A stretch of 64,000 nt of DNA, from assembly GCA_022818135.1 (NCBI GenBank), contig JAFMSR010000005.1, positions 24,532,175 through 24,596,174 of the forward strand, read 5' to 3'. The stretch is from Saxidomus purpurata. Its lineage: Eukaryota; Mollusca; Bivalvia; Venerida; Veneridae. Every line of letters begins with the position of its first letter. Position 1 is the first letter of the stretch. The position numbers and the translations under genes are program-made. Positions 10,145 to 45,780 of the stretch are shown here, piece after piece. The notes under the pieces were generated by a model, which had not been told where the DNA came from, did not search any database, and was given only the letters and a program-made list of their open reading frames with translations.

Positions 10145-10470
10145 TGAATGCAAAATATCGTTCCACTTGGCTACGAATATTCTAGACAATGTATGGCAAG
10201 CGTATGTTGCTCTACTTTACAAACCGAGTAGAATATAATCAGACATAATAGCGACGTTTTGATTTTGTCCAGATATAGGTTAGAAGACATCCGCAATTTA
10301 TTTGTCTGGAACATCAAGATACTAGTAATTTATAGTTTTATTTCTTTGAATATTTATTCAACTTGATAGCGGATTTTTTAAATGCCAGACAGATACAGTA
10401 CGAGATCTAGAAGCACGAGAGAGTGGTACATGGCTTGTTTGTCAGATGAAAAGGTTATCTATCTGGCAAT
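10145..10470 (+). repeat. Dispersed segment, alpha module with a partial beta module
   Basis: This is the first of five alpha copies: 'gcgacgttttgattttgtcc', 'gttagaagacatccgcaatt', 'ttatttgtctggaacatcaa'. The counterparts are at 16555, 20100, 30240 and 43345. A worn beta piece follows ('aaatgccagacagataca', about 10382). The orientation is the same as in all other copies. Confidence 0.6.
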
Positions 10471-12953
10471 TGCCCATGTTTTAATAATACAGTAAGTTAT
10501 GATTTCAGTATGTAATACATGAGTATCAACTACCGAAGAGCTAATTAAAAATGCGTCAGGCTCCAAAGTTCTCAACACAAATTGCAAACGTTAAATGAAT
10601 TGAGTGCGCCTTTATCTTCCTTGGTTTTATTTCTTTTCTCATTTTTGACAAGTAATCTTAAGTTTTGCCTGTTTTTAAATCTTGTTTAAATTCCAACCAA
10701 TAATTCGAATTTAGGTTTTTCTTATAATAAAAAGCGTACATATTTATCAATGTATAGGTCTGGTGTTTTTGTGAACTGCAATGCCATCGTTATGGTTTAA
10801 AACAGTTCAATTTAAGCATGTGTGATTTGCTATTTGTTTTACCATATGAGATGTAGAAACTCCACTCGTGTAACTGATTCAAAGCAGAGTTAGTAATATT
10901 TTTCTCGCGGAAGTGCTATGTTGTTTTTTGTTGTATTGGATATTGCTGTTATATGTTTTGCTTTTGTTTATAACGTAAGTCTTGCCATTAAACTTATGTC
11001 CAGTATGTGTGTTATGTATGGTCGCTGATTTGTGCCATTTCGCCTTTTCATCCCGCCACCCCGTCGAGCGAAAACACGAGTGGCGAAGGTGAAATGACAC
11101 ATATCAGCACCCTTAGTTATTTCTACATATGATCACGACATGATTCAAGGTCATACATGATTTGATTAAAATACATCAAATTGTTTTTTATGTTTGCTTT
11201 ATACATGTATGATGACCGAGATGGCGTAAATGAAATTATTTTTCTCGTCTATGCAAATTAGACCTCAGGCTGGAAGATCTTAAAATCAAGAAGTGCTTAT
11301 TTTATGCCAGTTGCTATATATCCAATTAAAAATTTGGGAACAGGGCAAATATATTAAATTCGATTTGAAAAGACAAAACTATATTGGATGATACAAATGA
11401 AAAACTTGTCAAAACGTACATGTAATTATCTACCTTCTGTAAAATCTAGAAGATTTTATTGTCAAGAAGTTTTTCTTTTATATCGCTTGGTAATTCATAA
11501 CTTAAAAAAAACTGATTGGAGGAACAATAACAGTCACTGTGCATTATGTGAGATTTCATTTTAAAGCTATATGCATAATGATAGTCTCTCCTGATCATTT
11601 GCATGTTCAAGCACGAAAAAGAAAAAACGAACTTGCTGTATTGTAAGATTTCTTAAAGTGAATAATTAGTTAATATTAGTATTTTCGAAAAACTTATCAT
11701 GTGCTAAGAAAATGCTATATTAATTGTTAGTAACTAGTAAACGTTTTTATCCTTTTACTTGTTTACATGTGCGCCGTTCCTTTGGACAATATAAATATTA
11801 CATTAACAATCTTAAAGTGGAATTATGCACATTTTTTAAAGTAAAAATCCAGCTGAAATAGGTGTGTGTAAAAAGGGTAATTTAACCCAATACACCAAAC
11901 TCTTCCTGCTACCAGTACGAAATAATAACTTTTATAATATTAGTTTTTCTATTTTGACTGGGAGAGTCATTAAAAAAACACCGCATGCAGGAATTGCTTC
12001 CCTTCCACTGCTGAAATCTCTACCAACAACAACCAATACACAAGGGAGATCACTGCGAATGGAACTATAATTTTATTAGTCCAATTTTTTCATTTCTAAA
12101 GCACCAACTTTTAATACCAATGCGGCATTATCATTAGTTTAACACATTTAAATGCACAGCAACCGAAAATTGCTTTTATAAAACTGCCACCAAAAATACA
12201 CTTTATATAATGTCACTTTAACAACGCAATCCAAATGATTACGTTTCTTTCTATTTTTAGTTAGGGAGTAAACAAAAGTTCCAGCACATTTTCTGGCCAA
12301 GCACTGAGAACAATTTTTGAAGAATCCAAAACGCCAGAAGATAAGTGGTAGGGGTGGATTTGTATCACGCATCTATGTTGTATTTTAAATGAATTTAAAA
12401 AGAGGCAAAGCCCAGTTGACAAGAAGAAACTATTCAGTGTATTCACGAAACTATCATATCGCTTATTAATAAGAAGAGTCTACGGATATGGATACACAAA
12501 ACAATCCCAGATATTTTTCAAGTTTATTAATTTGACAAATACTGACATAAATGGTAGGCTTGTACATGAACTTAGGTGACAGTTTTGTGACAGTTTTGAT
12601 TGAAGAACTCAGGCCAGAATACAAGTCCGATCTTTTGAAGTTTACTGCAGAACCATGGTCGCCTTCTGGCTAGGACTGTAATAACAATGTAAGTATACAA
12701 TAGTTGTACATAATACAAATAGTTGTTCCTCCGATGAAGCGGAATCACATTATGATAGTAAATGCCTCATCAAAAAGTATAAAAGGAGGCTGAGGAATTT
12801 CAGACTGAAATAAAATCGCAAATTCCAAATTGATGTGCATGCTGCGTATTGCCTGTATCTTGATTTAAGTGATTTTATTCAATGAAGAAATAATTGCGTA
12901 ATTATTGTCAGTAAAGTATGCTGTAAACTGTACAATATTTGATTATCTTCTTT
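10471..12953. other. Mostly unrecognised; possible continuation of the duplicated segment
   Basis: The part near 10490-10640 looks distantly related to 17180-17330 ('aaattgcaaacg' versus 'aaattgtaaacg'), which extends the alpha similarity. A hairpin lies at 11024-11108 (separate entry). A short direct repeat 'gtgacagtttt' occurs twice near 12568-12590. Open frames near 12148-12446 (minus) show no recognisable domain. Confidence 0.35.
11024..11108. repeat. Imperfect inverted repeat (hairpin)
   Basis: GCTGATTTGTGCCATTTCGCC (11024-11044) pairs with 11082-11108, which ends in 'gaaatgacacatatcagc'. The mismatches are few. The loop holds a GC-rich part 'cccgccaccccgtcgagcg'. It is probably a small foldback element or TE fragment. 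Confidence 0.55.
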
Positions 12954-13255
12954 ATTTGAAGAGTGATGTCGCCGCCATAAAACCGGAAGCGGAAGTGAAT
13001 ATTTCATAAATGTTTGAAATTCGATTTAGAAATTACTTTAAAGAAGAAAAGACATAAAGCTCCCATTAAACGTCTATATTTTATGTTTGTAAAGCTGAAC
13101 CAGCGAAGGCACTTAGGGAACAAAGTTATCGATTGCTCACGATAGGCCTTTATTTATGGAGACATTTAAGTTTTCATTTTAAAAAATCCAAAATTTTTAC
13201 GACGTATACTGCTAGAACGATTTAAATTGAAATCATAGTGCCTGTCTAAAAATGA
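12954..13255. repeat. Segment with weak similarity to 17400-17900
   Basis: Words such as 'tgtcgccgccataaaa' versus 'tgtcaccgtcataaaa', and 'tttatttatggagacat' versus 'cttatttatggagagat', recur in the same order. They suggest the segment starting at 10.1 kb and the one at 16.5 kb were once copies over several kilobases. The match is weak and judged by eye. Confidence 0.35.
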
Positions 13256-13649: not shown

Positions 13650-13890
13650 GTTATCGCTTACATGTATTGTAACCCTTAAATTAAGAATTGTTACGATTTC
13701 GTATATGGTAACTGGTTTAATCAGCAGACGGCATTGTACGTCAATCAATTTGTTTACGTGAAAGTCATTTACTAGTCTGCAGAGTTCAAAATGAATAGAC
13801 TATTTATAAAATCCAGAAGGAATTAGACGTGAAAACGACAAACGGCATTTAGCCTTTCCGACAGCTTTGGTATTTACAAATGCAGCATTC
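13650..13890 (+). repeat. Dispersed segment related to 28255-28440
   Basis: 'attgtacgtcaatcaatttg' here corresponds to 'attgaacgtcaatcaatgtg' near 28270. Further words in the same order follow: 'gaaaacgacaaacggcattt' versus 'gacaacgagaaacggcagta', and 'tttacaa' near the end. It is another pair in the set of same-orientation duplications. Confidence 0.45.
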
Positions 13891-14514: not shown

Positions 14515-14819
14515 TTTAACTAACTTTAAACTAAACCAGAAGTTATATGACCTTTTTTTCGACTCGATTTGCAAAAAGGACAACTGCAATAAATTGCTTG
14601 AACAAGAAAACACTCCTTTCTTTCCTTACTTCTTTACTGAAACTTTAGTTTAACATACATTTTGATTCAACTCCATCAACTGAAACCATTATTTAGTGTT
14701 GCAAGTTTGAAGATCACATGTAAAAATGAATTAAGAATACATCCGAAATTAGCTTGGTTTTTCTCCTTCTGAATTTCCACTATCTTTAATATATCGTTTT
14801 ATCTTACAATGCAAATAAA

Positions 14820-14940
14820 AACAGAATATGTTTTCAATGCCAGACAAATATACTTGCTGAAGACGGCGTTTAAGAAGCTTGTAATTCGTGCTGTCCGTTA
14901 CTGTATATGTCTGTACCTCGTTGTTTTACATATATTGTCG
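14820..14940 (+). repeat. Dispersed repeat module beta, isolated copy
   Basis: 'gttttcaatgccagacaaat', 'aagacggcgttt' and 'cgtgctgtccgttactgta' match the other beta copies in order. There is no obvious alpha copy directly upstream. Confidence 0.55.
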
Positions 14941-15579
14941 CCTCTTTCGTAAAGAAGCGATAACATATGAAAGAATTGTGACAATACACAGACAACTGGG
15001 TTCAGTAGAGCAATTCTAGTCCGAAAGTGTATCTTATAAGGTAATCTAATAGCGATGTGTTCTAAAATCTAAGACATTTTGTCTATCGTGTCTACTTTTC
15101 ATATTTCGATATACTAAACATGTTAAAATATTTTGCTGTTGCATGTGTAAATAATTTTGACTTGTACAAATAACGTATTGATAAAAATTCAATTTGTATG
15201 AATGATTTCAAACAAAATTGTTTCAAAATCGGTTAGCAGGAAAATATGTAGAACTTTGCGTCTTCACAAGAACTATCTTCAAAAAAGACTGTCGGCGCGA
15301 TTTTGAGTATAGATAGATAGATAACCTTTTATAATAGTGACATGTGTATAGTAGAGATATACATGTAAAATAGGAATGTAATAAATAATACAAAACACAC
15401 GACCCAAAGGGCCTATAGGTTACCTTACACACATGTTTCTAACATTAATTCACGGATACACACATATAAAATAATATATTGAACAATAATGTAACTATAT
15501 GAAACAGATCATAGTGATAATTTCTGATTAATATAATCATAACCCAGTAAGAGGTTTAGAAGATGAAACGAGGCCAAGA
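14941..15579. other. AT-rich sequence, nothing recognised
   Basis: A short (GATA)n-like word lies at about 15309-15322 ('tagatagatagataac'). Nothing else is seen. Confidence 0.5.
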
Positions 15580-15720: not shown

Positions 15721-16554
15721 AGTATTGACAAAACTCAACAATTGACCTACGTAGACTCCAAATCTTGGTCATTCTCATCAATTTTAGCATCAAAGAAAGA
15801 TAGTCTATGTCGAGGAATTGGCCCCTGTTCTCCCGCGTGAAAGGCGGTAACACTTACCACTCTACTAACGAGAATTGTTGATAACTGACGAGTATTAATT
15901 ATGTGGAAATGCATCATTGAGGAAAACAAAATTAATTCATGTGTTTCTTATCAAATGTGTTACTAAATAAGAAATATTGACCGTTATTCACATGGTTGAT
16001 AAAGTATAATTACTCTGCACTCATAATTAATATAAGTTGGGAGGTAACAACAGATTATGTTGATTGATATGAGCCATTTATCTGCTAAAATTTTAAAACC
16101 ATTCACAAAAGACTGAAAACGCGAGAATATTTATTGACCTTCTTTTTTCGGTATTATCCAATTAAAAGGTGCCTTACATAGAAACATTTTCAAACCAAAA
16201 ATGTTAAACATTCTACTTGTCATTTCATTGGCGTTTGAAAGATTACTAACTTCCGGGGAACAGCGAGCTTAATACGGCTGCGCCGAAAACAATGTCATTT
16301 CCACTATGATAGGAACAGCCCCGTTGTTTAGTCTTATCATTTGTAAATGCATGTTAAACAACGGACTAATTAGGGAGAGAGTTTTAAATAAGCTTGAAGC
16401 TTTCTACTCGATCCTAAAAGTCTATCATAAATGAGACACATTGTATATGCAATGTATTGAATAAAATATTGTTTAAACCAAATGTCATAATATCAAATTT
16501 GCTTAAGATTAAAAGGCTGAAAACTGAGTTCTTTGGTGTTTGTAAGAATAGTGT
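15721..16554. other. AT-rich sequence, nothing recognised
   Basis: No gene, RNA or repeat could be supported. Confidence 0.5.
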
Positions 16555-16965
16555 GGTTTGTATGCAAAATATTTACTTTTTATCCACTTGGTTACGACCA
16601 TTCTAGAAAATCTACTTAGTAAATTACATGGTCTGCGTCTAGCAAATCATGGCCTTTTTTTCTACTCAGGTCTACTTCATTACAAGCTAAGTGGAATGTA
16701 ATCTGCGATAATAACGACGTTTTGATAATGTCCAGGAATAGATTAGAAGACATCCGAAATTAATTTGTCTGGTACAACAATCTACTCCAATTTTGTTGTT
16801 TTATTTCTTTCAATATACAGTTTTCTAATTTAATTATAACGGAATTTCGCTTGACGAACTAGGACAGATATATCTTCAATGCCAGACAGATACAATTTGG
16901 CTCTTTCATTCGTTACAGGAATTCTTGCCCAGGACGGCGTTTCTGATATTTTTGGTTCATTCCGA
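16555..16965 (+). repeat. Dispersed segment, alpha and beta modules
   Basis: The alpha part (16555-16815) has 'ctacttcattacaagctaag', 'acgacgttttgataatgtcc' and 'aaattaatttgtctggtaca'. The beta part (16840-16965) has 'aatttcgcttgacgaact' and 'cttcaatgccagacagatac'. Both are contiguous and in the same order as at 20.1, 30.2 and 43.3 kb. The open frame 16830-17090 (minus) lies across beta and is not conserved. Confidence 0.65.
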
Positions 16966-19900
16966 TTATCATTGTAGATATATGCGTCTCCTAGTTTTAT
17001 AGTCCTGTGGCAAATTAACTGATTATATCGAAGAAAATTTTGACGTATGGCAAATGCATAGGCATTACTATGCGAAACGAAAGTTAACATTTCAGATTAA
17101 GCAGAATTAGAGAGTTTGACATAACTTTTTTGTCAAGGGAAATCATTCTCAATCTTACAATCTCACATTTGTCTTATCAAATTATGTAGTAAGTTATAAT
17201 CTCCCCATCAATGATAATTGGTAACCGAGAGGTTGGTTGAACAGTGTGAGTCTAAAAAGTTCCCACCATAAATTGTAAACGCAGAGTGAAATTAGTGATA
17301 TGTGTGCTTGTTCTAAAATGGTTAAAATACAGCCAATAATATAAATTACGTGTATTTTGTTGTTTTATATATTACATATTTTGGATAACTTTAACAACAT
17401 CTGGGTTTGACTTAAGAGGTCTGTCACCGTCATAAAATCTGAAGAAGCTAATCATGAATTAAAGCGAAACCTCTCTGTAATAGCCACTCTTTCGAGAGCA
17501 TAAAACGGTTGGTTTGAAGATGTGGCTGTTTTAGAGAGGTTCATTCATACAGATAAAAGTGTTTTGGAAACAGAAATAGTGACTGCTGTTTTATGATGTG
17601 GCTGTTGAATAGAAGTGACCGTTCAGGAAGACTAGACTGTACACCCAATGTAGTAATTATTTTAACAGAGCAGCAGAAGTAAATTTCTCAAAAACTCTCT
17701 ACATCGCGTGATGTAATTTAAAATACGAGCAAAGAAATGTCATAAAACTCAATCATTATTGGTCGCGAACGGCAGCCCTTTTATCTATGAAGAGAAATTT
17801 TATTATGGTAGTCTCTTATTTATGGAGAGATGTTTTATTGTCGAAAGTCAGAATTTTCTCAAATGATGATTTCAAAAATGACTTTAATTTGAATTTACTG
17901 TACCATATTGCTCGCCTCAATCGTGTCAATGTTATAATGCCAATGTAAATAATGCATGTAATACTTGTTTAATAAAATCACAAATCAAGTTAATAAATGG
18001 TCCCCTTATCTCTGTATACGTCACATTATTTGACCACAAAAGAACAACACCACTGAACGTTTTTGAAATTTGGACAGTCTTGCTTTTTGTATTAACCAAT
18101 TAAAAATCCAGAATAATGTCTTACAATGTACACATAATCTACGAGCACAGTCGGAAATTACTTTCATTGGTGAAGGAAATTACAGCTTTCATCTGAAGTC
18201 TTTTGCAACAGATAAAATAACAGCATATTCTAAATCGACTGAAATATGTTTTTCATAAGAATTTGAAATTTTACAAACCTAGTGGGCGAAGGTAGAAGCT
18301 GGATTTCTTTATATTATATTATTAACAAGATGGTTTGAAATAAAGGATTTTAGTTGCATTACTGACGTTAATTTTTCATAATTTATTTTAATCGCTGAAC
18401 AATTTTAAAATTGGACAATAGCTGCCACGATGGCACAAATCAATAGTGAACTATACTATGCTTTTTACGCTCTACACGGTGAAGGAAGCTGTCTTTTTGG
18501 GCTGCTCCATTCTGCCATACAGCTCCTTTTCCAGGGTGGTACAATCTCTAGATACACACATTTTCTTGACTCATCATACAGGAGGCATCTCTGAAGTTAA
18601 TGCTCTGCTACCACGCGAGCATTTAAGTGCTGAGGACAACTTCAATTTTTCATACATATGAGCGCTGAGTCCTGAACGAAGCTTTCACAGAATGACTTGT
18701 TCACATCTGTATATATATGGTAGACATCTTTCTGTGTATTGTTCTTTTAAGAGTCTTGATTCTAGTGAATTTTCTTCATAAGTGACTCTATTGAGTGGCT
18801 GGTCGAAACAAGGTACTACAGTACAGGTACTGATGGTTAATAGATCATACTTTAATTGCTCTTGCGGTTCCGACAGGTCTGGAGGAGTGAACCACGGCGA
18901 GAAAAGCGCACTTAACTTGCGAACATTATGTGGTCGAAATCACTTGGCCGACATTACATTTTCGAATTTACTGGGCAGATAGTACGCGTGCTACTCATTG
19001 ATAAAAACAATAATGTTATTACACATCAACAAGAAACCAGTGTAACAGCAGAATCAAAACATTATAGCCTTGCATTTTATGTTTTTTGACACCGGAAAAG
19101 TTTATTTTTTTAAATATCTCATTCACTTTAAGGTTAACACTTGTGCGTCTGTTATATGTATTTGCGACTGTGAGGACAGAATCCCTGCAACGAATGGGCA
19201 AATTTTGCTGTTAAGTTGTTTTTAGGTGTGTTGCATTATTGCAATGGCACATTCTAAAGGCAAAAGTGTTTAAAAACATTTGATCGTACAGTCTTTGCAT
19301 CCAATCTTATATTTGATAAAATATGGTAATTCAGAAAATGGAATATGTAAATCAGCCCTTTAAACGCAATCTTCATGAAATTGAAACACGAAGATTTAAT
19401 TAAATATATCCAGTAAATTAGAAATATCATGTTCTCATTGTTTGCATGATGCCTACAGGGAATGAGTTGTCCATCATGAAATATTATCACACTGACTACG
19501 AGTCTACAGGCATGAACATTTTGCATCATATGAGATTACCCATGTTTTCACATATGTCTAGAATATTTGGCCAATATAATTTTATTCTTTATCGGGAAGA
19601 CGTGGACGATCAAATGTCATGTTGTTTGACACAGGAAGTGTAAAAAACAGGATGCTTGTTTTAATGAATATATTACTGTCCAACATTGAATACTATTATA
19701 AAACTTACATTAGCATATAAATATGTATTTGCCATTACGTATGTCAGGCCACTGACCAAAAATTCCGCTCTTTCTACCGGAGTTCGTTCATATTAAAGAG
19801 TTTCACCAAAAAATGACTTGAAAAAGTATTCTGACTGAAGCTTTCCTTGCTGAAAAATTAGACAAGCTGTGTCATTGCAAATTTAATCAGATTTACGACA

Positions 19901-20099
19901 GTGGTTCCAAGCAGTATCCAGACCTTCGTCATAATTTGTAAAGAACTGGAGAAATCTTTTGTAGAGTCTTGGATCTCTTGGAAAGTTCAATATGCTAAAG
20001 AAAAGACATTTTTTTAGCGCAGTATCGGAAAACTATAATTCGTGAACGTATTTAAAGACTTTATAATGTGGGTAGACTTTTCAACAGTTATATGCACAA
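16966..20099. other. Mostly unrecognised sequence; some old repeats
   Basis: 17180-17900 contains stretches distantly like 10490-13170. Two 'gatgtggctgtt' words lie near 17517 and 17596, in an imperfect direct repeat. 19310-19490 is a copy of repeat epsilon (compare 6900-7030). 18440-18980 is less AT-rich and has open frames at 18446-18661 and 18782-18982 without known domains. No gene is supported. Confidence 0.4.
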
Positions 20100-23000
20100 T
20101 AGTAAATCATGCTTTCCTACTCCTTTCTGTTTCTTTACAAAGCTAGTGTAACATAATGAGGGATAAAGACAACATTTTAATAATGGCCGGATATAGATTT
20201 GAAGGCATCCAAAATTAATTTGTCAGGTACAACATGATGTAAGTAATTCTCCATTTCGTTTTAATAATAGCGGAACTTTACTAGACATTCTAATGAATAG
20301 ACAGATATAAATGGGCTTTTTCGTGCATTGCAGGAAACGCCTCTTAAAATTAATAGTCAGTCAGGTTAGGATTGTGCTGTCCATCCCTATGATCATGTAG
20401 GCTACCTTTTCCGCCGTCTGTATTAAAGAACATTGAAAAGTTGAAGAGATTATTTCTTATCATTTGATCTAACATGTATATTTGTTATGAATTGCACTTT
20501 TCAATTATTCAGTTAGATAATTTCAATCGTTTACCTTTTTGAATAAATCTATGGCAAAATAAGAAACAATGTCATATACAAAAATTGAAAAGTATAATCA
20601 TTAGGATATGAAGCATTAAAGTTACAGGAATATATATCGTCCGGCCAAATAATTGTATGCTTTTACAAAGTGAAATTATAGTCTTTAGAATAATGTCATG
20701 CTTTGCCCAATATAGCGCGTCTGCTAATTATTTAAATGGTCTCTTCTGTTTTATATATTTTGAGATTTATTTTCTTTTCTCCTATACAAGACTGCAACTG
20801 CTCAGATGTTTTGCTTATATAACAGGTTCTGTAACAGAATGTCTGTGTACTAGTCAGGGTAACGTGTTTGATGTTCTTTGTCAAATTTCGCTTTGTACGC
20901 TAGCACTATCTTAGATACATGTACTTGGTCATTTGATTGTGGATACATGGTTTAAAACCCGGCAAGAATTACATTGCTTGCTTGTTAAGTGTATGGGAAG
21001 CAATCGTTCGCCAGTGAATAAATTATGTTTGGAATTTAATGATAAAGATTGAGTGGAGTTAAAATATTCAGATTAAACCGTTTGTGCTGTCCTCAAGTAA
21101 GTTTTAACCGATACAGACTTTTATCAATGTACCAAGCTCTGGCGTCTATCAACGTCATAGCAAAACACTTCATAATACACGAAAGGACGCATTATTTCCT
21201 GTTTATCAAACTATCCCATAAAATAAACAAATTTATTGCTAGAGGGGAAATCACGACTGTTAGGTCCAGTAAAACAATAATAAATGATGTAATAAAGCAG
21301 GAGACTTGCTGCTTGACAACCCTAGCTAGACATTGAGACTGTATGTATATTTACATTGAAGCAAATAAGATAGCACATGACTGTTATTGTAAGGTTGTCT
21401 ATGCAAAACATTTTGTCCTAATTCAAATGTGCAAGAAAGGCAGACTTCCAAGTAAAGATGTGCAAAATTATTGCAATGAATCAAAACTTGAAATCGAGAT
21501 GATTCAAAATTAACAAAATGTCATTTAAATATAACTGAAATTTTTAGAAATAAAGAGCACAGTAAAAGACAAGAGGCCAGGCACAATAAACAACAACACA
21601 TGTGGGTCTGTCAACTCTTTTCGTTGCCGTACAAAAGTAAGTAAACAATGGTTGTCTGAGTGTCTTACGCTAGTTTCAACTACATTCTGTTACTCAACCA
21701 TAATGTATCTACCAGTTGGATACTGCACGGTCAGAAACACTTTACTCGTTATAACAGTGATGATCCTATGATAGTGAACTTGTAGGACAACAGACATTCG
21801 GAGCCCATTTTAGTAACATAAACAGGTGATATAGATGTTTTTAAAGATAATTTTATAAGTCTCTATGAACAGGTAACATATATAGGCTTTGAGAGCTATG
21901 AAGTTAATACTTCACGGTAATTTCAAGGAGGGATTGGCACAGAACGACTGTTAACATCAATAGTACTAATAGAGTAATGTCATCTCACTTTCCTTTGAAA
22001 TCCGTACGGGCCGTGTTCCCTAATACTCAACTTTACAGAACAGTTTAAAACATGTATGATTAAAGTAGAAGATCGAAAAAGATCGATGTTATATCTATTA
22101 CATGCATCTATATGTTTCAAACATAATTCATATTTAGTCAGTTTGATATAAGAGAAACGTATTACAATAGTTTTCACATACATACTAATCAAACGGTAAA
22201 CACTTTAATCCCTGAATTGCTGTTCTTTATATCGCTTTAAACAGCATACAATCGCGGCCCTCTAAGACAGTATATGCTTTTTTTGTTCCTGTGAGTTAGA
22301 ACAAGATGTTAGTCAATCATTAGAAAAGAAACATTACATGTCATAAATACATAAATTATAACTGGAAATATTCTTACCAATATACACTAAAGTCTTACAG
22401 TATTGCATCGCAGGAAACTGTGACCGTGTTTTTCTCCGATCAATGACCTAATACTGTAATAGCTATTTCTTCCTTATTACTGTCATAAAACCATATATCT
22501 AGGGAACTATATAAACATTTATTTTACTGCTAATATATAATTGACATTCACTGCAGATAACTGAACATCTAGCTGATTTTGATCATATAAAAATGTCTTT
22601 CAATGCAACTTAAGTGAGAGACTAAAGTCTAAAATCTATCTCTACAGTATGTATGTATAATTGTACTTCGTTTTGTATCTGATTCGAGGAAGAGAGACTC
22701 GGCTTTTATTGCATAACCTTTTCTTTTGATGGTCATATAGGTGATATTTATAAGAATAAAGGTGACATGTTCATGAATATGTTACAACAGTCATAAAACA
22801 GTGAATCAGTGTCTTGAAAATAAAATGTCTTTTATTCATGGTCAAATACCAAAAGCGCTTTTGCACACATTTTATCAGTTATCAGTTAAAAAAAGCTTTC
22901 TATACACTGACTGCAGGGCTTTCAAATAAGTTTGATCTTCAAATATAAAAGCTGCTCATTCACAGTTGAGGTGAAAATAATGCATGTCTTCCCAACGACG

Positions 23001-23370
23001 TATTCAGACTCTAACTTCACATTGAAGCTAAGATTGATACGATAAAAACAAAATTTACGAAGAACAGTTTTACTTAAACTACTCTGAAATAGCACTAAAT
23101 TCAAAAGCGTTGCAACGCTTTATGTCATTTTGTGGTGTATATTTTCATTTACAAATGTAACAGAAAACCGTTACATATGTATAACGATTATCGATTTACA
23201 GGATCAAACTAAATTATTCAGAAATATCTATGTGCAAGCTGCTTTAAACTATTTATAGTTTTTAACTTCTCAGAATTTTGAAGAGATGTTGCTTTGAAAA
23301 TAAAGTGGGATCAAGTCTGTTGAAGATTAAACTTCTTGCCTTAAAGTATACTTACATAAATCCATATCGT
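20100..23370 (+). repeat. Duplicated unit U1 (alpha, beta, gamma, delta in order)
   Basis: Alpha is at about 20100-20260, beta at about 20265-20410, gamma at about 21120-21520 and delta at about 22440-22770. A tail near 23310-23350 ('agattaaactt...ttaaagtatac') also has a match. The same modules recur in the same order at 30240-36360. Alpha, beta and delta recur at 43345-45780 with an alpha-to-delta distance of about 2.35 kb, against about 2.39 kb here. In gamma, 'aataaatgatgtaataaagc' is identical at 21278 and 31236. In delta, 'taaaaccatatatctaggga' is identical at 22486 and 35803. There is no shared coding frame, so this looks like duplicated non-coding DNA, or introns of a decayed gene array. 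Confidence 0.6.
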
Positions 23371-26300
23371 ACCATTTGAACATGGACTAATGGTATAGGA
23401 TTAATGAAAATATGCAGATGACATATTTGTGCAATTAATTTTGACCCGCCATCTGTTTCAGACAGGATTTCAGTTACATATTAACTTATTCTTTTCAGTT
23501 GTTATCAACTGATTTTCAAAAATGGATTTTGTTTAGAAAACTTAGAAGTTTGTTAAGAAAGGTTAGAAAACAAAAAAGGGACATCCAAACATCCAAGGAA
23601 TATATATGGTAAGACATGCATACACATCAAACTTTAAGACGTGGTCGTTTGCTATAGGAATTTGAAATTTGCTCATGCGTAAGCTTGATGAAGAACATCT
23701 ATGGTACGGATTGCATGTTATCGTGACTCACCGCTACAGCTCGAACTGGTGGGATTCATACTTGTGGATAGTTTTGTGGTTGCAACATATGCTTAAATTG
23801 GCAGCTTTCAGTCGGCGGTAATCTATAATTGTATCGGCAGCTTTCGTCGGCGTTTATAGAGTGTAAAGCAGTTCTTATCTGAAAAGCAACTACCAGATTA
23901 AGGATGGCCGAAGTATCTACTTAAACTCGTTTTAATCCGTAGCAATCAATTAAAATAAGATTTGTAACGTTAAAACACACTTTGTACCAGACCAAACTAT
24001 TCTGATACAAAAATTACGGTGCTCTCATCAATTGTACTGTACTGTATATCTTCAACAAGATTGTGAATGTATCTGACATCTGACCTTTTACATATGTTTC
24101 TAGTGGTAACGCCATTCCCGGAAATATCTTTTTTATTGTCTGAAACTAAACTCTAAAGAGGTATATTATTTAAAAGGGATAAACTTCAAGAAACAACTTT
24201 AACTTATAACTCGTTAATTCATTCTCTAATGTACAGGAAACATGCCAAAATTACGCTCGAAATATTAGTCTCCAAACTGTTGATGCAGACTATATTAAGC
24301 TCCGATGAAAATCGTACTGGTTATTGTGAATTTAGCGGAAAATGCAAGACCAGACTAATATCCTCAGGAAAATTACTAATTTGATGTATTTGGTTTTTAA
24401 ACACTCACTTTAATTAATTTTTACTGCAACTGTTATTATATGTGACGTACAAAATGTTATTTTCAATACTGGCGAGACAATCCTTCCCAAATGGTAAATT
24501 CAAGCTATTTATGTATTTTTTCATATTGATTTTGATGCATTTTAAAATATTCTTATATTTAAACACACTGGTTTTTATGTTACGATGATATTAAAGAGGA
24601 GACTGTTGTCTAACGCTGAGTTCATAATCTTTAAATTGAAAAAAGAAAATACCTAAATTTAGCAATTTTATGAGTATGTAAATATTTCCAACCACAATGT
24701 GGTGTCAGACGTAATATTTTTGTAACAAAACAAATAGTTGTACCGAGTATTCCTTAGATGATATTTAATACAGTGAGAAAACAACGGCGGGCAGTCATAT
24801 CTAGTTTGATGAAAACAATTTTCTTGCGCTTTTAGTGCCAAATCCCATTGTACTGTGTAAAGTCGTTTGTATTTTGTAGATAGGCGCGATTGTTATAAAG
24901 TCAAAAAATAAGTTATAAATATGTACGTTTAAGTTTTTTTTTCCATTTAGCATATACAATGTACATTGCCAGGATCTTTCCCATGGTTAACCGCTGAAAA
25001 TACACTGTTGAATCATTTACATATAAATGCAGTATTTAAGGAAGTGCACCATTTCCCTTAGTGGGTTGGGTGCATAATCTTCCATTTTTATTTTTTCCCT
25101 TAATATCAAATGTATATCTCATGGTTGGTATGCCATAATATTGTTGTATACTTACACTTATAATTTATGAAATCAAAATAAGAAATAGTGAATTATGATG
25201 AAGAACGGATACATTTTGAAACGTTTTCTTGCTTGTTCACGAACAAATACAATGTGACTGAATCAGTGAAAATAAAGGAACTAAAGCATGGTTTAAACCA
25301 CTATCAACATGCTCTTACATTTTGTATGCTAAAAGTGTTTGTTTATCTAGCCATTTAAAAGATGTAAAAAATTCAGAGAATTCCTGAAAGACACCCTCAT
25401 GTTTATACAGACATTTTACAAAATATGTTTTTGATATAGTAAAACGAAACAAGCGGTGTTAACTATGTTTTCCATTTTTCTTAACATGAATTAGTAGAAT
25501 AAGTTTACTACAATATTATGGAATCTCAAAAAAGAGGAAAAAAATGATATAAAACATAAAAAAAATAAAAATAAAAATCTTGCACCCCACCCACCAACAA
25601 GGAAATTGGTGCGCCACCTTAATATTTCTATATCAAGATAAGAGAAGCAGACTTTCGTGTTTGTTTTTTGCTGAAATTTGTTTTGCAATTTTGTTGTTTC
25701 GTTTCAATAAATTTTGTATCTTAAAAAAAGGACAGTAATAATGTTTGTTTGCTGTCAAGTTACTGTCATTGTAAGAGCTGATACAAACGACAACAAGATG
25801 TTTGTTATTGAGTCTTTGTTATTGAGTTGATGATAAATGTAATACCAAAATCATTTATAATGTTGAAATATGTCCCATGCTTTTAACTTTTATCTCAATG
25901 ATACTCTTGCATATTTCATTTTCATTATGCGGTCCCATATGCTACTTTCTCTTTCTATTCTTTTATTTAAAGGTCCATTACCAAAAACTGTAATTCCTTG
26001 ATTTTTAACAGGGGTTTGAAACTGGCTTCTAAAACTTTACTATAACGAAAAACCTGTTATGACAATACTATAGGTGAATGTATTTGTATATCCTTAGATT
26101 GACCATGGGTGGTCTTTTGTCCTACTTTCGCTTTATTGCATGTTTTTAACAGTCAGACTATACCTTGCGAATTGGAAGTAAAATTCTATCACTTTATTGT
26201 AGGTATCTTATTTCTTTACAACCTCATTGAAGCCTTAAATATGAGAATTTGACAATTAAAAGATTTGAAAACTTCAAAGCCTCAATTTCGTTTTGAAAAT

Positions 26301-27117
26301 GAAAATATAATTTATCAATTTTTGTAATATAGTAACACAATTTAGTACAAATGGTATGTCATACATTTTCTTCTGAGAAGACGCCTGTAATTAAGGATTA
26401 AAGAAAATTCGTGTCTTAGAAGTCTTACAAGGTGCTCGCTAAAAGCTGTATAATATTTGTTTGACGTTGGTTGGTCTCAAACTACCTGGTTAAAATAGAC
26501 ATTTTAGACGTTAGTTACATATAAATATTGTTATTGCATTTATTATTCATATTCAAGCACAGACAAAATAGACTTCTTATAAAGTCCAATGGCGTGTGAC
26601 TACAGACAATTATTGAACACATGTCGCTTCTTATTTCCTATCCTTAATCAGAAGAGATTGTTGTTATTGTACAAACGTCTGTAACCTTGGTTACAGAAAG
26701 ACATAAACTGTTACAACTCAACAAAATGGCGCCATTTAATGACTCTTGTTTTTTTGTAACTATTTTGTTTTTAATTTGAAATGTAAAAAAATTGTTTAAC
26801 GTTTCAAAACATGTTGTTTAAACATTTTGTTTACATTAAACAAAGTGACGTCTTTACATGACTCGTTATTGTGACACTTTTTTGAACAGTCTGTTGTGGA
26901 CTACTTAAATGTACAGTGTTTAGTGAATAATGTTTATTGACTCGATTTTTCTTCTTTCATAAATTAATAGAAGCTGAAAGGAATAAAATTGCGGAAAATC
27001 ATTAATATTGTCGGTTCATGTTTTTTTATACTGAAGCATCTCGCCCACCCCCACAAAATTGATATGACTGGTAAGATGTTCAAAACTCATATAATTCTCT
27101 CAATGTACATTAGCATA
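23371..27117. other. AT-rich sequence, nothing recognised
   Basis: No gene is seen. A short perfect palindrome CTGTAACCTTGGTTACAG (8 bp arms) lies at 26679-26696. The start 'ttaaaggtccattaccaaa' at about 25968 has the look of a MITE end, but no partner end was found. Confidence 0.45.
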
Positions 27118-27260
27118 TTCTAACTTGACGAACGATGACAGCTATATTTTCAATGCCAGACAGATATAGTTGGCTATTTTGTTCATTACAGGAATCGTCG
27201 CTTAGGATGGCGTTTTAGACACTTTGGAAACGTGCTGTCCATCACAGTAAATGAGTGTGT
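27118..27260 (+). repeat. Dispersed repeat module beta, well-preserved copy
   Basis: 'aacttgacgaacgatgacag', 'ttttcaatgccagacagata' and 'ttgttcattacaggaatcgt' give nearly the consensus of the family. The word 'ttgttcattacag' looks like a splice acceptor, but no downstream frame is shared between copies. Confidence 0.6.
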
Positions 27261-27479
27261 CTCGGTATTTCTTAACCCTGTAGCCATTTCATTGTCCGTA
27301 GCCAAAAGAATTAATCGACCAGGTTATCCCTGTTCTGATCAACAGATATGTTTTCAACTTTTCATTATCAGTACCATAACACATCTTGATCATGGTTTAC
27401 AGTGTGAACTATTACGTCATTCAGTTGTGTCCAATTGAAAGAGAGGTAAGTGCAGTATTCATTACATTTCAATACAACA

Positions 27480-28254: not shown

Positions 28255-28440
28255 TACCTAACGGTGTGCATTGAACGTCAATCAATGTGATTACTTTTGA
28301 AGTATTAGCTTGTATGCAGACCGAAAGGAAAAAAAGAACGATTTCTTCTACTCGAAGACATTCAGACATGACAACGAGAAACGGCAGTAAACCTTTCAGA
28401 CACGACTCTCATTTACAATATACTGTGCTTGATTAGAAGT
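28255..28440 (+). repeat. Dispersed segment related to 13650-13890
   Basis: See the partner at 13650. Shared words in order include 'gaacgtcaatcaat' and 'gagaaacggcagtaaaccttt'. The orientation is the same. Confidence 0.45.
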
Positions 28441-29737: not shown

Positions 29738-29807
29738 GTGCCGCCGTAGTTTAGTGGCAAACACACTGGACTGGATTTTCCAGAGAGCAGCGGTCCGAAT
29801 ATACCTC
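29738..29807 (+). repeat. tRNA-like SINE head
   Basis: GCCGCCGTAGTTTAGTGG has a reasonable A box (29747 onwards). It is followed by CTGGACTGGATTTTCCAG, which forms an anticodon-like arm, and by a worn B box 'gcggtccgaatatacc'. The stems are imperfect, so it is a SINE head and not a tRNA gene. The downstream body runs on without a clear end. Confidence 0.45.
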
Positions 29808-30239
29808 AAATAATATCCATCTGACCCCAGTAGGTTTAAAGCCAATCGTCACTACTATCTGTGTGTCATATATTAAGATAAAACGCGCTATTCTGGCGCA
29901 TACGCTCAGTTCATTAATTGAATTTTACCCTTAATAACGAGCCTTCTCAATAATTGAAATTCACTTGATTTTAATAAATCTTTACAAAAGAGTTTCCAGA
30001 GAGTTTGTCAAGTAAACTAATCTGATCCCACAAATGCTATTGTACTTTGTATTTAATAGAAGAACTTGTTTATATACGTTATTCAATTTATTGATTATTT
30101 TGTCTAATATCTTAGAAAGTTCTAATTGCAGAAAAACGTTTACTGAGGTTCAGGGCAGTCATCTAAAACTATAATAAAAGAGACGTGTATGTTTAAGTCT
30201 TAAGACTGTCTTCATTGTGTTTGTAGCGATTCCCGATTT
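29808..30239. other. AT-rich sequence, nothing recognised
   Basis: It may include the body of the SINE that starts at 29738. No other feature is seen. Confidence 0.4.
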
Positions 30240-31624
30240 ATATGCAAACTAGTTTAACTATTTTCCTCTTGGTTGCAAGCTTTGTAGACAATCGACTAAG
30301 TAAATTACATAGTCTGTGTCTAGTAAATCATGTTTTTCTTCTCCATTTTACTTCATTACAAGCTGAGCGGAATAAAATCAGGGTAATGACGATGGTTTAA
30401 TAATGCCAAGAAATAGATTTGAAGGCATCTAAAATTAATTTGTCTGGAAAAAGAAGATGTTCGTACGTCTGCTTTCCAAAATCTGTCAATATATTTCGCT
30501 TTTAACTTAATATCCGAACTTCAATCGATGAATGAAAGCTATATTTTTGCTTTTTCGTTCATTTCTGAAAACCTTGCCTATAATCATTTGTCAGACACAA
30601 TTGACTCGTGCTGTCCATTGTTGTAAATGCTTGGATATTGAAGCTTTCTATGATCCAGTATCCGTTTCGAAAATTATACATACCAGATTGAAAACTGTAA
30701 CAGTATCTGTACCGGCGGGTGTGTTTGTTAAAAATTGCACTGTCAGCTGTTCGATTTGTAAGTTTTCTGCGATAATCTCTTTGAATAAGTTCGAATAAGT
30801 TTTGAAAAAGAATAATTTGAATTAGTTGGACTAGTTGATTTTAGAAATTTGGTAGGTTGTTCATAAACAAGGGTACAAAATGTGAATATATCCTTCGATC
30901 GATACACCTGCATACACATGTACTTTGAAACACAGCATTTTATGTCTTCCATTCCTATTTTTCAAATGATCTGTTCCAATATTTCGATTCTGTCATTCAG
31001 GGGCAAAAACCGATATGAATTGCATATTATAACAGTCGGTTCATGCGATGTGCCGGATCATACGAGTGGTTGACCTCGGCCGTGATCAAGCAATGTGCAA
31101 CCAACGAGAAAAGATACGACTCGCTTTCAACAGACTATTACATTTCCTGTTTATCATACTCACCCCCATGAGAAAACACAGTAAACAAATTTATTGCCAG
31201 AAGGGGAATCTCGACTATTGCGTCCAGTTAAACAACAATAAATGATGTAATAAAGCAGGAGACTGGCTTCCTGGCAACAATTGCTAGTCAAGGCTTTACT
31301 TGTATATACAGCAAATAAAATAACCACTCGATTTTATTGTAGTTAAGTAAACGCTATTTCTTCATTTAAATGTCAAGGAAAGAAGAAATCAGGATAAAAG
31401 GAAAAGTAGTCCTCAACAAAAGTGAACAAAATTATTTCAATGACCCAAACTGACAGAATCGTATAGTAACAGAAATCGAAATCAATCGATGTTTCAAACA
31501 TTGACAGAATGGTCGGTAACCAATGAAATGAGCAAGATGTGTTAAACGATACTGCATCACAAATCAGAAACATGAACAGAAATTTAAAAATGGAAATAAA
31601 CAGTATTTACTTTTACAGATACAT

Positions 31625-31690
31625 GAAAGGGGCACTCCCTACATCTAGCAGATTTCTGGAAACAACGTTTTGCCTACATATAATTAATGG
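31625..31690 (-). mobile_element. Fragment of the TTAA-type MITE
   Basis: 'gaaaggggcactccctacat' followed by 'ctagcagatt' is the terminal part of the MITE family (compare 35306 and 47505). Similarity fades after about 45 bp. Confidence 0.55.
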
Positions 31691-32436: not shown

Positions 32437-32814
32437 TTAAAGAGACATACCCTATGACTGATGTCAAACTAAATAGCCTCCAAAACATAAATAACAGAAT
32501 CTTTCTTAGTATTATAACTTAACCTAAAAGTTTCAGCTATGCATTCCCAGTCATTATTGATAAGATCTACGTTTTAAAATATACTACAGTACCGTAAACC
32601 ATTCAATAATTTATTTAGAGTTGTTGTTGTACAATTAATAGGTGGATGCGATTTATTAAAGAAAACCTCTATATTGATTAATTGTGGTAAAATTAGGCAA
32701 TTTTCGCCATATGTTCTTCTTTGAAATTGTATTTATTTATCATATTACGTTCATTGAAAACATCATCTATGTTTCGAGAATATAATCTGCTAGCTGTAGG
32801 GAGTGCTTCTTTAA
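32437..32814 (+). mobile_element. TTAA-bounded MITE, copy C (378 bp, complete)
   Basis: It begins TTAAAGAGACATACCCTA (32437) and ends TAGGGAGTGCTTCTTTAA (32814). The ends are imperfect inverted repeats with TTAA at each border. The interior is uninterrupted and serves as the reference for the empty sites in copy B. There is no transposase. Shared words with the others include 'gtaccgtaaaccattcaata', 'gagttgttgttgtacaatta' and 'ctatattgattaattgtggt'. Confidence 0.8.
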
Positions 32815-35305: not shown

Positions 35306-35673
35306 TTAAAGAGGCACTCCCTACATCTAGCAGATTATACTCTTGAAACGTAGATTATGTGTTCAATGAACGTAAAATGATATATGAATACAATTTCAAA
35401 GAAGAACCTATGGCGAAAAATGCCTCATTTTACCACAATTAATCAATATAGAGGCTTTCTGTAATAAATCGCATCCACCCATTAATTGTACAACAACAAC
35501 TCTACATAGATTATTGAATGGTTTACGGTACTGCAGTGTATTTTAAACCGCTGATTTTGTCAATAATGACTGGGAATGCATAGCTGAAACTTTTAGGTTA
35601 AGTTTTAATACTTCCAAAGATTATATCCATTTACGTTTTGGAGGTTATTCAGTTGACATCAGTTATAGGGTAG
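35306..35673 (-). mobile_element. TTAA-type MITE, copy D
   Basis: It starts TTAAAGAGGCACTCCCTACA (35306) and runs, inverted relative to copies A-C, to 'catcagttatagggta' near 35673. The far TTAA is not preserved. It matches copy C closely throughout. Confidence 0.75.
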
Positions 35674-36360
35674 TTTTGCTATTTGATCAGACCATTGTTC
35701 GTGAGTGTCTAAACGATATGTACTGACAATATTGAAGTGAAGGAAATGAAACGTTTGAAGGAAATGAAACATCAAAACATCTGATACTGTCTTGATATTG
35801 TCCTAAAACCATATATCTAGGGAACCTTATAATCATTTTATTTGGTTCGTTCAATAAAAGTGACTTTCACTGCAGATAATTGAACATCTGAATGGCTTTG
35901 ATTATATAAAAACGTCTTTTAATGCAAGTTAAGGTAGTGGTTTAAGGCTTTCGTCTCTGCAATTAAATATAATGTAACATAGCCATGCTGTCTCTTAAAA
36001 TATGAAATACAATAGAATGTATAGTTGCACGCTGATCACCAATAAAATTATTCGAGTTTTAAAGGAAGGACTTGTCGCGTAAAAATTAAGAATTCTCTTT
36101 TGATGGTCTGATATGCAAATATATATAATTACCAGCAAAATTGAAAAAAATAGTTATTGTGTAGTAATCCTGAACTTCAAGAGTAGAGACAAGCTCTTGA
36201 CTAGCAATTCTGAGGCATAAAGTTTATGCCATATATCAGTTAAATTGGTTCAACACCTCTTATAATTGTTTTTATGTTTTGATGTAGGTTTGTAAATTAT
36301 GTAAGATTAAACTTGCTGTATATTTAATGTTTTGCCCAAAAGTATACCCTGAAGGATATT

Positions 36361-42500: not shown

Positions 42501-43344
42501 CATAAAACTGTCATATTCCTACTCTGAGACACATGTTTAATGAAATTATGTCTATCTTACAATCTATAAGATATTTGCTACATAATGAATTATGGACCTA
42601 TAGGAAACAGAATATGGAAATAAGACCCCTAAGCGCACTCTTTGTGTAATTGATATGCAAGGAATATTCTTTGACAGTAAATAGGCACTGACATGCTCAT
42701 GATTGGCCATTGACAAAGAGTCTCCAAGCAAGAAGATTTTGACCTTCACATTATAAAACTGAGATCATTCATGCAACTCCCATATGGATATAAGTTCTAT
42801 CATCAAATGTATCTTTACTACTTTTATCAAATTTGGCTTTTAAGGTAAACTGAATCATTTATTATGGAAACTAAGTTTAATGATAAGTGTCATCGGATAT
42901 ATCAAAAGTAGTGTGCTTGTTCATTGTTAAAGAATGTTTAATTCAACGGTTGTTGTTCCTAAAAATTCCATTGAACACAGATTACATTCAGTTCTCACTA
43001 ACTCAGATAATTTATGTTTAAGACAATAATTGACTTAAAGCGCAATTCAAATACACTATTTTTCGTACAAAAAACAAACAAGTGTGATTTGCTTGATTTC
43101 ATTGAATTTGTAAGAATTACTGTTTTTGTGAAAGTGTCTGTGCAACAATTTAAAGCACTTGATATTGATAAATCTTTGTAACACTCTTTTAAGAAAGTTT
43201 GTCTAGCAAGCTGTTTAAATTCCACTTGTAAGGTTGATTTTGTTATTTTCAGCTTAATTTCATAAATTTAAACTAGAACACATATGTTTTAAAACTGAAC
43301 ATCAAATAACCATTACAACGTTGGTAGCCTTGTGCAGATTTATA
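39561..43344. other. AT-rich sequence with few features
   Basis: A perfect 24 bp tandem duplication lies at 40947-40994 (unit 'atactttcatttgaaatg' plus 'tttgtt'). Repeat epsilon is weakly visible at 42575-42660. The part at 41500-41720 is less AT-rich and has an open frame with several Cys but no ATG start and no known fold. No gene is called. Confidence 0.45.
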
Positions 43345-43694
43345 TACACTATAGTCTGACTGTTTTCCTCTTGGTTTTGGTCTCTGTCTTGACAATAAAC
43401 GTATATTACATGAACTGCGTGCAGTCAATCATGTTTTTCTACTCCATTTTACTTCATTACAAGTTTAGAGAAATATAATCAGGGATAATGGCGACGTTTT
43501 ATATAGTCCAGAAGTAATTTAAGAAGGTATCCAAAATTAATACGTCTGCTACAATAAGATTTTCTTAATTCTGCAATCTTATTTCTGTCAATATATATCG
43601 CTTAAACTTAATAACGGAACTTCACTCGACAAACAATGACATATATATTTTCAGTGCCAGACAGTTATATTTTGGCTATTTCGTTTATTACTGG

Positions 43695-44295
43695 AAATGT
43701 AGCATATGACTGCAGGAATATTTCTCCATGGCCGAGATGCTGGCTTGAAATCACGTAGCATATGATTGCAGAAATCTACCTCCATGGCATAGATGCTGGC
43801 ATGAAATTGAATCTGCCTCCATGTCCTAGATGCTGACTTGAAAACACGTAGCAAAGGATTGCAAGAACCTGCCTCAATGGCATAGATGCTGACTTGAAAA
43901 CACGTAGCAAAGGATTGCATGAATCTGCCTCCATGGCCGAGATGCTGACTTGAAAACACGTAGCAAAGGATTGCAAGAACCTGCCTCCATGGTTTAGATG
44001 GTGACTTGAAAACACGCAGCAAAGGATTGCATCAATCTGCCTCCATAGCCGAGATGCTGACTTGAAAACACGTAGCAAAGGATTGCAAGAACCTGCCTCC
44101 ATGGTTTAGATGGTGACTTGAAAACACGCAGCAAAGGATTGCATGAAACTGCCTCCATGGCCGAGATGCTGACTTAAAAACACGTGGCAAAGGATAGCAA
44201 GAACCTGCCTCCATGGCCTAGATGCTGACTTAAAAACACGCAGCAAAGGATTGCAAGAACCTGCCTCCATGGCCGAGATCCCGGCTTGCAATCAT
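43695..44295 (-). repeat. 56 bp minisatellite, about 11 units
   Basis: The landmark 'tgctgacttg' or 'tggtgacttg' falls at 43831, 43887, 43943, 43999, 44055, 44111, 44167 and 44223, exactly 56 bp apart. Earlier units at 43738 and 43794 and a last at 44279 are more diverged, and one has lost about 19 bp. Because 56 is not a multiple of three, a reading frame visits all three phases of the unit, and the minus strand is largely free of stops in all of them. That produces overlapping frames of up to 123 codons (43651-44022, 43776-44102, 44032-44214, 44106-44291) with a 56-residue super-period. I take these as by-products of the array, without evidence of translation. Confidence 0.9.
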
Positions 44296-45639
44296 TGTTT
44301 CGTTGTAACGTTTCATTCAGTGGGGCCATGGGTTTAAGCCTGCAGCCGGGCATGTCTCTTTATTTACAAAACTGGCAGTTTGTTATGGGAAAAGGTTTTA
44401 AGCACTAGTTCTTCCAGGCACGATGTTTCGGAAAACTGCCCACCTGTGAAAATAATTGAAAAACAACACCAGCTGAAATGGGTGTTTAACTCCCAGAAAC
44501 GAATAGGATTGCATGTCAGAAACATTGAGTTCGAGCTATTTATCAGTGTAGATGTGTTGTTGTTATAGTTTTTGTAGACATTTAGTACATCTTTTTTTAC
44601 CAACTACAACCACACGCATTGAAATATGATGAGTAAATCTCATTCGTCATATGTAAGAACATGTTAATTTGTTATGAATTTAGTCAGAGAATTTTAATCG
44701 ATAACACCTTTATACTGGCTAGTGAAAAAATAAAAAGATTCGTCAATAAAAAAATATTAAAAAATGAACATGAAAGTAGTATAAATCCTCAGACCAATAC
44801 ATTGTAATCATCTTCTTAAAGTTAATACGCCCTTAAAAGAGTTTTGATTTCGCTTGCATGTAAATACCAATATGTAGAATACCCTAGCTTTCAGTTAATT
44901 ACTGCAGTTGCGTATAATCATGTAAATGTTAACCCCAAAATTAAAACTTTCTCAATGAACATAATTTAAAGTAGTTTCTATCCAGATATACCAAAATACC
45001 GTAACATTCAGCTTACGGCTTTTCCCGTTAGACTAACATGATCTTTTTGTATGTATTCTATTGAAAAGATAATACAATTTTGTTTTTAATTCGTTTCAGC
45101 TAATGCCGTAACGTGTGCATATTAAGAGAAAGTCATCCATTTCTTACAAAGTACGGTCCATAAGGTTAGTAACGTTACACCATTTAAAATTGTATATTCT
45201 AAAGGTATATATATATATGACAATATTTCAACAACATCTTAAAATCTAACCAGTTTTTCATGCTATTACGTATAAACAATACCTACCTGTCAAAGATCTA
45301 TTGCAATGAGCATGTGATTATGCCGTATGAACTTGATTTTCTATCAAACAGATTTCGATGATAAAGAACAGAAGTGTACAGCATAAAAAACACGTTTTTT
45401 TCCGGACATTTGGTTGCCCCTTGATCTTGAAAAAGAAATTGCTCCTTGCATTTAAATTTGAACTTTGAATTTCGCCTTAGTGTTTCTGGTTCAAACAACC
45501 GGGCAAAACTATACATTTACAATATTTCTGATTTACTCAAAGTAATCTATAACCAAATCTCCCAAGTGATTGGCCTAAATGAATCAACAAATATCATTAA
45601 ATGGAATCTCCTATATTATATGGCACTAAAACATCATGT
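44296..45639. other. AT-rich sequence, nothing recognised
   Basis: It lies between the minisatellite and delta of U3. A short (TA)n lies near 45206. No gene could be supported. Confidence 0.45.
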
Positions 45640-45780
45640 CTAGGAGACCATGTAATTGTTTAATACTGTACGTTAACCAAACTGGCAGTTAGTACAATTA
45701 ATTAAACATCTAAATGATTTATAATCAAATAAAATGTCTTCACGTGACACTTAAGTGGCAGAATTAGGCCTGTTATCTTT

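What the first reader, a model, noticed from the sequence alone, without database searches (positions are those of the whole stretch)
10145..45780. Same-orientation duplicated segments repeated along 35 kb
Alpha copies start near 10.1, 16.55, 20.1, 30.2 and 43.3 kb, usually followed by beta. Gamma and delta follow in the same order in U1 and U2, and delta also in U3 with nearly the same alpha-to-delta distance (2.35 and 2.39 kb). All copies point the same way. Random transposon insertion would mix orientations; tandem segmental duplication fits better. The copies are diverged, so the array is old. It could be what is left of the non-coding parts of a tandem gene array whose exons decayed or lie elsewhere.
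Basis: partly seen in the sequence, partly recalled or inferred. Interest (0 to 1): 0.75.

Follow-up and report, generated by a model that had tools for sequence, protein, structure and literature searches.

The report
Old noncoding tandem duplications in clam
A 45-kb stretch of a clam-like genome holds at least nine worn copies, all facing the same way, of a piece of DNA that shows no sign of making protein, most likely left by old local tandem duplication rather than by jumping genes or a dead gene cluster; this is mostly ordinary genome wear.

Summary
With one repeat family and two tandem repeats masked, the array has 41 distant self-matches on the same strand and none on the opposite one; 20 Markov simulations gave at most one each. 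Nine alpha/beta cores, all +, lie between x = -0.3 and 43.7 kb, with collinear flanking blocks. Best reading: an old, decayed tandem duplication of locus-specific DNA.

The second half of the reading, a gene array that lost its exons, is not supported: Pfam finds no convincing domain in the array, 1 of 66 windows looks coding, and there is no codon phase. The same coding test is positive on a real four-gene nAChR-like tandem array just upstream. Two more tandem arrays without coding signal lie downstream. The ~360-bp core diverges less than its flanks, but shows no site-rate pattern, coding signal or RNA fold; function is unproven. The host is probably a bivalve.

The parts
1..258 (+). Core U0 (alpha/beta); begins upstream of the window at x = -300
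   Evidence: nhmmer -300..258, E 3.9e-110 (the window part was a seed)
8343..8806 (+). Core U8, split by an A/T-rich palindrome (8490-8681)
   Evidence: nhmmer E 6.8e-10 with a profile not containing it, and 8740-8806 at E 0.0032
10050..10467 (+). Core U10, alpha only; beta not recognisable
14643..15000 (+). Core U14, weak, mostly beta
   Evidence: nhmmer E 1.2e-10 with a profile not containing it
16450..17050 (+). Core U16, alpha and beta
   Evidence: 7 genome matches, all at this locus
19991..20620 (+). Core U20, alpha and partial beta
26905..27371 (+). Core U27, beta with little alpha
   Evidence: 3 genome matches, all at this locus
30042..30815 (+). Core U30, alpha and partial beta
   Evidence: 5 genome matches, all at this locus
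43138..43713 (+). Core U43, alpha and beta
43699..44294 (.). 56-bp minisatellite at the 3' edge of core U43; core-like sequence resumes at 44504-44572
6484..7059 (+). Block eps before U8 (also 18885-19509, 42107-42777 and a weak one at 15434-15534)
29796..30039 (+). Block up before U30 (also 42991-43230; weak at 7502-7616)
10387..10798 (+). Block iota after U10 (also 17076-17438)
9087..9266 (+). Block eta (also 11160-11340 and 11418-11510)
21180..21547 (+). Block gamma (also 31130-31489)
   Evidence: genome search with the unit places gamma only at this locus
31421..31670 (+). Block kappa (also 35108-35298)
   Evidence: weak: 58% identity; profile is built from the same two copies
22422..22699 (+). 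Block delta (also 35735-35989 and 45557-45844)
   Evidence: genome search with the unit places delta only at this locus
23280..23358 (+). Block nu (also 36276-36354)
23811..23944 (+). Block zeta (also 47086-47220)
13666..13889 (+). Block theta (also 28190-28429)

Best explanation
The locus is an old head-to-tail tandem duplication array of noncoding DNA. A several-kilobase stretch of locus-specific sequence was duplicated in place several times, which leaves all copies in one orientation. The copies then decayed by point mutation, deletion (beta in U10, most of alpha in U27, the core at 33 kb) and insertion of dispersed repeats, a palindrome and a minisatellite. Shown here: one orientation, collinear blocks, restriction to one locus at the sensitivity used, no coding signal. 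Inferred: that unequal crossing over or a replication error made the duplications, and that the array has no selected function. Other tandem arrays of the same kind lie about 50 to 110 kb downstream, so the neighbourhood seems prone to such duplication.
For: 41 plus / 0 minus distant self-matches, at most 1 per Markov simulation in 20. Nine cores, all +. Collinear blocks, e.g. U20 and U43 share eps, core, delta and zeta over about 5 kb. Genome searches with three cores: 5, 7 and 3 matches, all at this locus and +. No coding signal: 1 of 66 windows at p<0.05, no phase and 33 of 205 pairwise indels a multiple of three. Neighbouring tandem arrays without coding signal: 13 plus / 0 minus at x = 97-122 kb and 22 / 1 at 129-164 kb, coding test 0 of 64 and 12 of 254 windows at p<0.05.
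Against: The core diverges less than the blocks beside it in the same pairs (U10-U16: 80% against 60-67%; U20-U43: 72% against 55-64%), which plain neutral decay of whole units does not predict. Core spacing is irregular (1.7 to 13.1 kb), and no intact unit boundary was found. Relative-rate tests were uneven; most of that comes from missing parts in U10 and U27, but U8 stays somewhat faster.
Confidence: 0.8

Rival explanations
1. Selected noncoding element: the ~360-bp core is a functional regulatory element or an unstructured noncoding RNA gene that was amplified in tandem, and selection or gene conversion keeps the cores more alike than the flanks.
For: Core identity 0.60-0.73 in 40-column windows against 0.36-0.54 outside; contrast also within single pairs. 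It lies beside a duplicated receptor gene cluster.
Against: No rate variation among core sites (gamma shape 117, log-likelihood gain 0.005); no structured RNA; no codon signal. Several copies have lost alpha or beta.
Confidence: 0.12
2. Leftover of a tandem gene array: each unit once held a gene whose exons decayed or lie elsewhere, and the blocks are its introns, UTRs or spacers.
For: A genuine tandem array of four nAChR-like genes lies just upstream on the same strand, with 9-10 kb spacing.
Against: No receptor fragment in the array (tblastn, E<=1; the only window match is E 0.13 at 55.7 kb); no convincing Pfam domain in 136 frames; 1 of 66 coding windows. In the gene array the ORF plus roughly 0.5 kb upstream is what stays alike, the opposite pattern. 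Minus-strand exons of another gene type lie between the two arrays.
Confidence: 0.06
3. Dispersed transposon family that happened to insert in one orientation.
For: The core has fairly distinct ends in the multiple alignment.
Against: No copy elsewhere in 1.135 Gb and no minus copy in three searches; flanking blocks are collinear. True dispersed repeats here behave otherwise: the 375-bp family lies in both orientations, and matches between the array and its flanks are mixed, 13 plus and 23 minus (recount).
Confidence: 0.02

Closest known systems
Ancient local tandem (segmental) duplication
   Same: Head-to-tail, same-orientation, collinear copies at one locus.
   Different: Too diverged (detected matches 55-80% identical) for the usual cut-off of about 90% used for segmental duplications (cut-off recalled, not from a call); no gene found in the unit.
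Tandem arrays of intronless nAChR genes in bivalves (PMC6896357; abstract and passages seen)
   Same: Stepwise tandem duplication in one orientation; such an array of four genes sits next to this one.
   Different: There the coding sequence is what stays alike; here no coding sequence was found.
Satellite DNA / minisatellite
   Same: Head-to-tail noncoding repetition.
   Different: Units of kilobases, nine detectable copies, irregular spacing, not homogenised, one locus.

Membership tests
Local tandem duplication (loose sense) | Copies in one orientation | tested here: met
   9 of 9 cores +; 41 plus / 0 minus matches
Local tandem duplication (loose sense) | Collinear blocks around the repeated core | tested here: met
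Local tandem duplication (loose sense) | Restricted to one locus | tested here: met
   (three cores). Limits: common words skipped, 5000 N at x = 123254-128253, and one search missed weak copies known locally
Segmental duplication (strict, at least 1 kb and about 90% identity; definition recalled) | High identity | tested here: not met
   54.8-79.6% identity in the 41 matches
Dispersed transposable element | Many copies genome-wide in both orientations | tested here: not met
Dispersed transposable element | Sharp common ends with target-site duplications | tested here: inconclusive
   core edges visible; target-site duplications not searched for
Tandem protein-coding gene array | Coding exons or recognisable pseudo-exons in the units | tested here: not met
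   positive control
Structured noncoding RNA cluster | Known family or conserved fold | tested here: not met
   no Rfam match at gathering score; alignment fold not supported; mean z -0.03 over 990 windows
Functional noncoding element array | Expression or chromatin activity | not testable with these tools
   no RNA-seq or chromatin data on hand

The most novel reading that the evidence does not exclude
The ~360-bp core is a functional noncoding element amplified in tandem, for example a regulatory array beside the nAChR-like gene cluster, kept more alike than its surroundings by selection or gene conversion.
Probability: 0.12. Interest if true: 0.6.

Novelty: new member of a known kind. Interest (0 to 1): 0.3.

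Why it matters
It shows that same-orientation repetition can record an old local duplication of locus-specific noncoding DNA with no gene or transposon behind it, and that several such arrays sit within about 200 kb of each other, beside a duplicated receptor gene cluster. Their matches range from 55-80% (here) over 57-77% to 59-86% identity, a series in which to study how noncoding tandem duplications decay, and whether a high regional duplication rate, rather than selection on genes alone, feeds gene-family expansion in bivalves. A functional core would be a rare amplified noncoding element.

Tried and rejected
One fixed period of about 3.3 kb: the first spacings looked like multiples of it (note), but U20 and U43 are collinear over about 5 kb and the cores at 8.3 and 14.6 kb break the period; dropped.

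Structured RNA: Rfam, alignment folding and windowed folding were negative (the strongest window had z -4.8, in one copy). Coding exons: tblastn self-comparison shows similarity in several frames of both strands, with stops; Pfam was run on 136 of the 149 stop-to-stop frames of at least 60 aa in the window, the 13 dropped being in the 156-bp tandem array, the palindrome and the minisatellite; the 283 frames of 45-59 aa were not scanned. In the flanks Pfam was run on 94 of 94 downstream and 80 of 118 upstream frames of at least 72 aa. The synonymous-change test gave 1 of 66 windows. ORF lengths lie within or at the upper edge of 8 Markov simulations.

Uneven rates among copies came mostly from missing alpha in U27 and missing beta in U10; U8 stays somewhat faster. 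Five paper searches (listings only, showing 4 of 4, 10 of 31, 4 of 4, 1 of 1 and 15 of 107 papers) listed no work on ancient noncoding tandem arrays in bivalves. PMC6896357 was seen as abstract and passages. Random control regions: eight of 50 kb were planned, one of 40 kb was obtained, so how common such arrays are in this genome is not known.
Full report
Frame. x is the window coordinate; contig position is 24532174 + x on contig C5 (58.4 Mb) of the host genome, 1.135 Gb in 4232 contigs. A hundred kilobases on each side were fetched; 5000 bases at x = 123254-128253 read N.

The observation. A sensitive self-comparison confirmed the five alpha copies and their beta, gamma and delta companions, all on the + strand. 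A profile built from seven copies found two more, at 8.34 and 14.7 kb (E 6.8e-10 and 1.2e-10). The copy at the window start continues upstream to x = -300. That makes nine detectable cores, all +, from x = -0.3 to 43.7 kb, with no further hit at E<=0.05 in the flanks.

More than chance. With one repeat family and two tandem repeats masked, 41 self-matches more than 1.5 kb apart are on the same strand and none on the opposite one (unmasked 46 and 4). Twenty order-3 Markov simulations gave zero or one each. In small-space unit comparisons weak minus matches do occur (18 against 75 plus at E<=0.05) but none at E<=1e-4, against 47 plus. By contrast the ~375-bp repeat in the same window lies in both orientations (1423+, 3452+, 32437+, 35303-, 47492-), and matches between the array and its flanks are 13 plus and 23 minus.

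Not a transposon. Three cores were searched against the whole genome: U30 gave 5 matches, U16 7 and U27 3, each list confined to this locus and to the + strand. With the 5.1-kb U20 unit, 4 of 42 listed matches lie at this locus (itself, alpha, gamma, delta); the other 38 match only two embedded stretches, window 21744-21921 and 22938-23198, which are dispersed repeats (40 of 314 candidates were scored). The U43 blocks eps and up found only themselves, although weaker copies are known locally, so very diverged relatives would be missed; very common words are skipped by the tool.

Anatomy. Blocks recur in order around the core: eps and up before it; iota, eta, gamma, kappa, delta, nu and zeta after it. 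Not every unit has each block. U20 and U43 share eps, core, delta and zeta over about 5 kb. Core-to-core spacing varies from 1.7 to 13.1 kb. The delta at 35.7 kb is better assigned to a unit that lost its core, because kappa recurs at 35.1 kb, though kappa itself is weak (58% identity). U10 has no recognisable beta and U27 little alpha. A 56-bp minisatellite sits at the 3' edge of the U43 core and an A/T-rich palindrome splits U8.

No coding signal and no structured RNA. Reading frames are within or at the upper edge of eight Markov simulations. Among 136 frames scanned, Pfam gave a convincing hit only for reverse transcriptase, at 54.7 kb; the next best was E 0.0034. In stop-free ungapped windows between array copies, 1 of 66 had fewer amino-acid changes than shuffled columns at p<0.05. 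The same test gave 35 of 235 (14 at p<0.005) in the nAChR-like array, 0 of 64 at x = 96-123 kb and 12 of 254 (0 at p<0.005) at 128-164 kb. Core indels are a multiple of three in 33 of 205 cases and column conservation has no phase. Folding gave mean z -0.03 over 990 windows, 0.6% below -3, and no Rfam match at gathering score.

Core against flank. Pairwise identity in 40-column windows is 0.60-0.73 in the ~360-bp core and 0.36-0.54 outside. Single pairs agree: U10-U16 80% in the core and 60-67% beside it; U20-U43 72% against 55-64%. In the 142-bp alpha part six copies (U0, U10, U16, U20, U30, U43) are 69-82% identical. Yet seven cores fit a single site rate (gamma shape 117; log-likelihood -2386.217 against -2386.222), which is not what a few conserved motifs would give. 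Mild constraint, gene conversion, or a later duplication limited to the core all remain open.

Surroundings. Upstream lie four nAChR-like genes, each in a single open frame, on the + strand at x = -38.5, -29.5, -19.4 and -10.8 kb. Three were given whole to Pfam and carry both channel domains; the fourth spans two loci and was seen in pieces and by tblastn. One was compared with solved structures; best match neuronal acetylcholine receptor alpha-6, E 3.1e-38. Of the 12 relatives of one gene, the named ones come from Mya, Mercenaria, Ruditapes and Mactra, at 31-42% identity, so the host is probably a bivalve; the species is not identified. Tandem intronless nAChR arrays are described in molluscs (PMC6896357, abstract and passages). 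Between these genes and the array lie minus-strand pieces of a Carboxyl_trans protein (which frame matched is inferred, and the name MCCC2 is recalled).

Neighbouring arrays. Plus and minus distant matches are 19 and 13 at x = 48-97 kb, 13 and 0 at 97-122 kb, 22 and 1 at 129-164 kb, 239 and 22 at -99.9 to -51 kb (largely a ~1.35-kb tandem repeat), and 4 and 2 in one 40-kb control stretch on contig C3. The array at 131-156 kb has units of about 7 kb starting near 131.3, 139.1 and 146.1 kb. A 3.3-kb piece of it was searched in the genome: 7 of 56 listed matches are at this locus and the other 49 fall in one embedded dispersed repeat (40 of 3367 candidates scored). So in-place duplication of locus-specific DNA without coding signal happened repeatedly here. 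With a single control region I cannot say whether the region is special.

Verdict. An old noncoding tandem duplication array, confidence 0.8. The find is sound but mostly ordinary; what is left to explain is the slower divergence of the core and the crowding of such arrays.

Noticed in passing
x = -38495..-9493 upstream of the window (L012-L015): Four nAChR-like (cys-loop receptor) single-frame genes in tandem on the + strand, 53-85% identical in protein.
   Followed up: partly
x = 96-122 kb and 131-156 kb downstream (L019-L025): Two more same-orientation tandem arrays without coding signal, units about 7-9 kb, 57-77% and 59-86% identical.
   Followed up: partly
x = -67.6 to -56.6 kb (L009-L010): Tandem repeat with a period of about 1.35 kb, matches 86-95% identical.
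   Followed up: no
x about -8.5 to -5.7 kb, minus strand (L015): Pieces of a Carboxyl_trans protein, apparently in several exons; the name MCCC2 is recalled.
   Followed up: partly
window 1423-1818, 3452-3712 with 4836-4931, 32437-32814, 35303-35672, 47492-47878: Dispersed ~375-bp repeat family in both orientations, 71-90% identical; the copy at 3.45 kb is split by about 1.1 kb (3713-4835), with a short direct repeat at the break.
   Followed up: no
window 2187-3411: Tandem array of a ~150-bp unit followed by a GGAC microsatellite; related sequence at x = 156.1-156.8 kb, 60-66% identical.
   Followed up: no
window 4429-4759 and x = -18014..-17685: Inverted pair 97% identical, much younger than the array, probably a recent dispersed repeat.
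   Followed up: no
window 21744-21921 and 22938-23198: Two dispersed repeats inside unit U20 with matches on many contigs in both orientations.
   Followed up: partly
window 52876-53502, minus strand: Frame that looks by eye like the first helices of a GPCR, broken by a stop; no Pfam match.
   Followed up: partly
window 54741-56321, plus strand: Pieces of a LINE-type reverse transcriptase in separate frames (RVT_1, E 1e-12).
   Followed up: no
window 40206-40555 and 62110-62434: Same-orientation pair, about 59% identical, with one member outside the array; dispersed repeat or array member is unknown.
   Followed up: no
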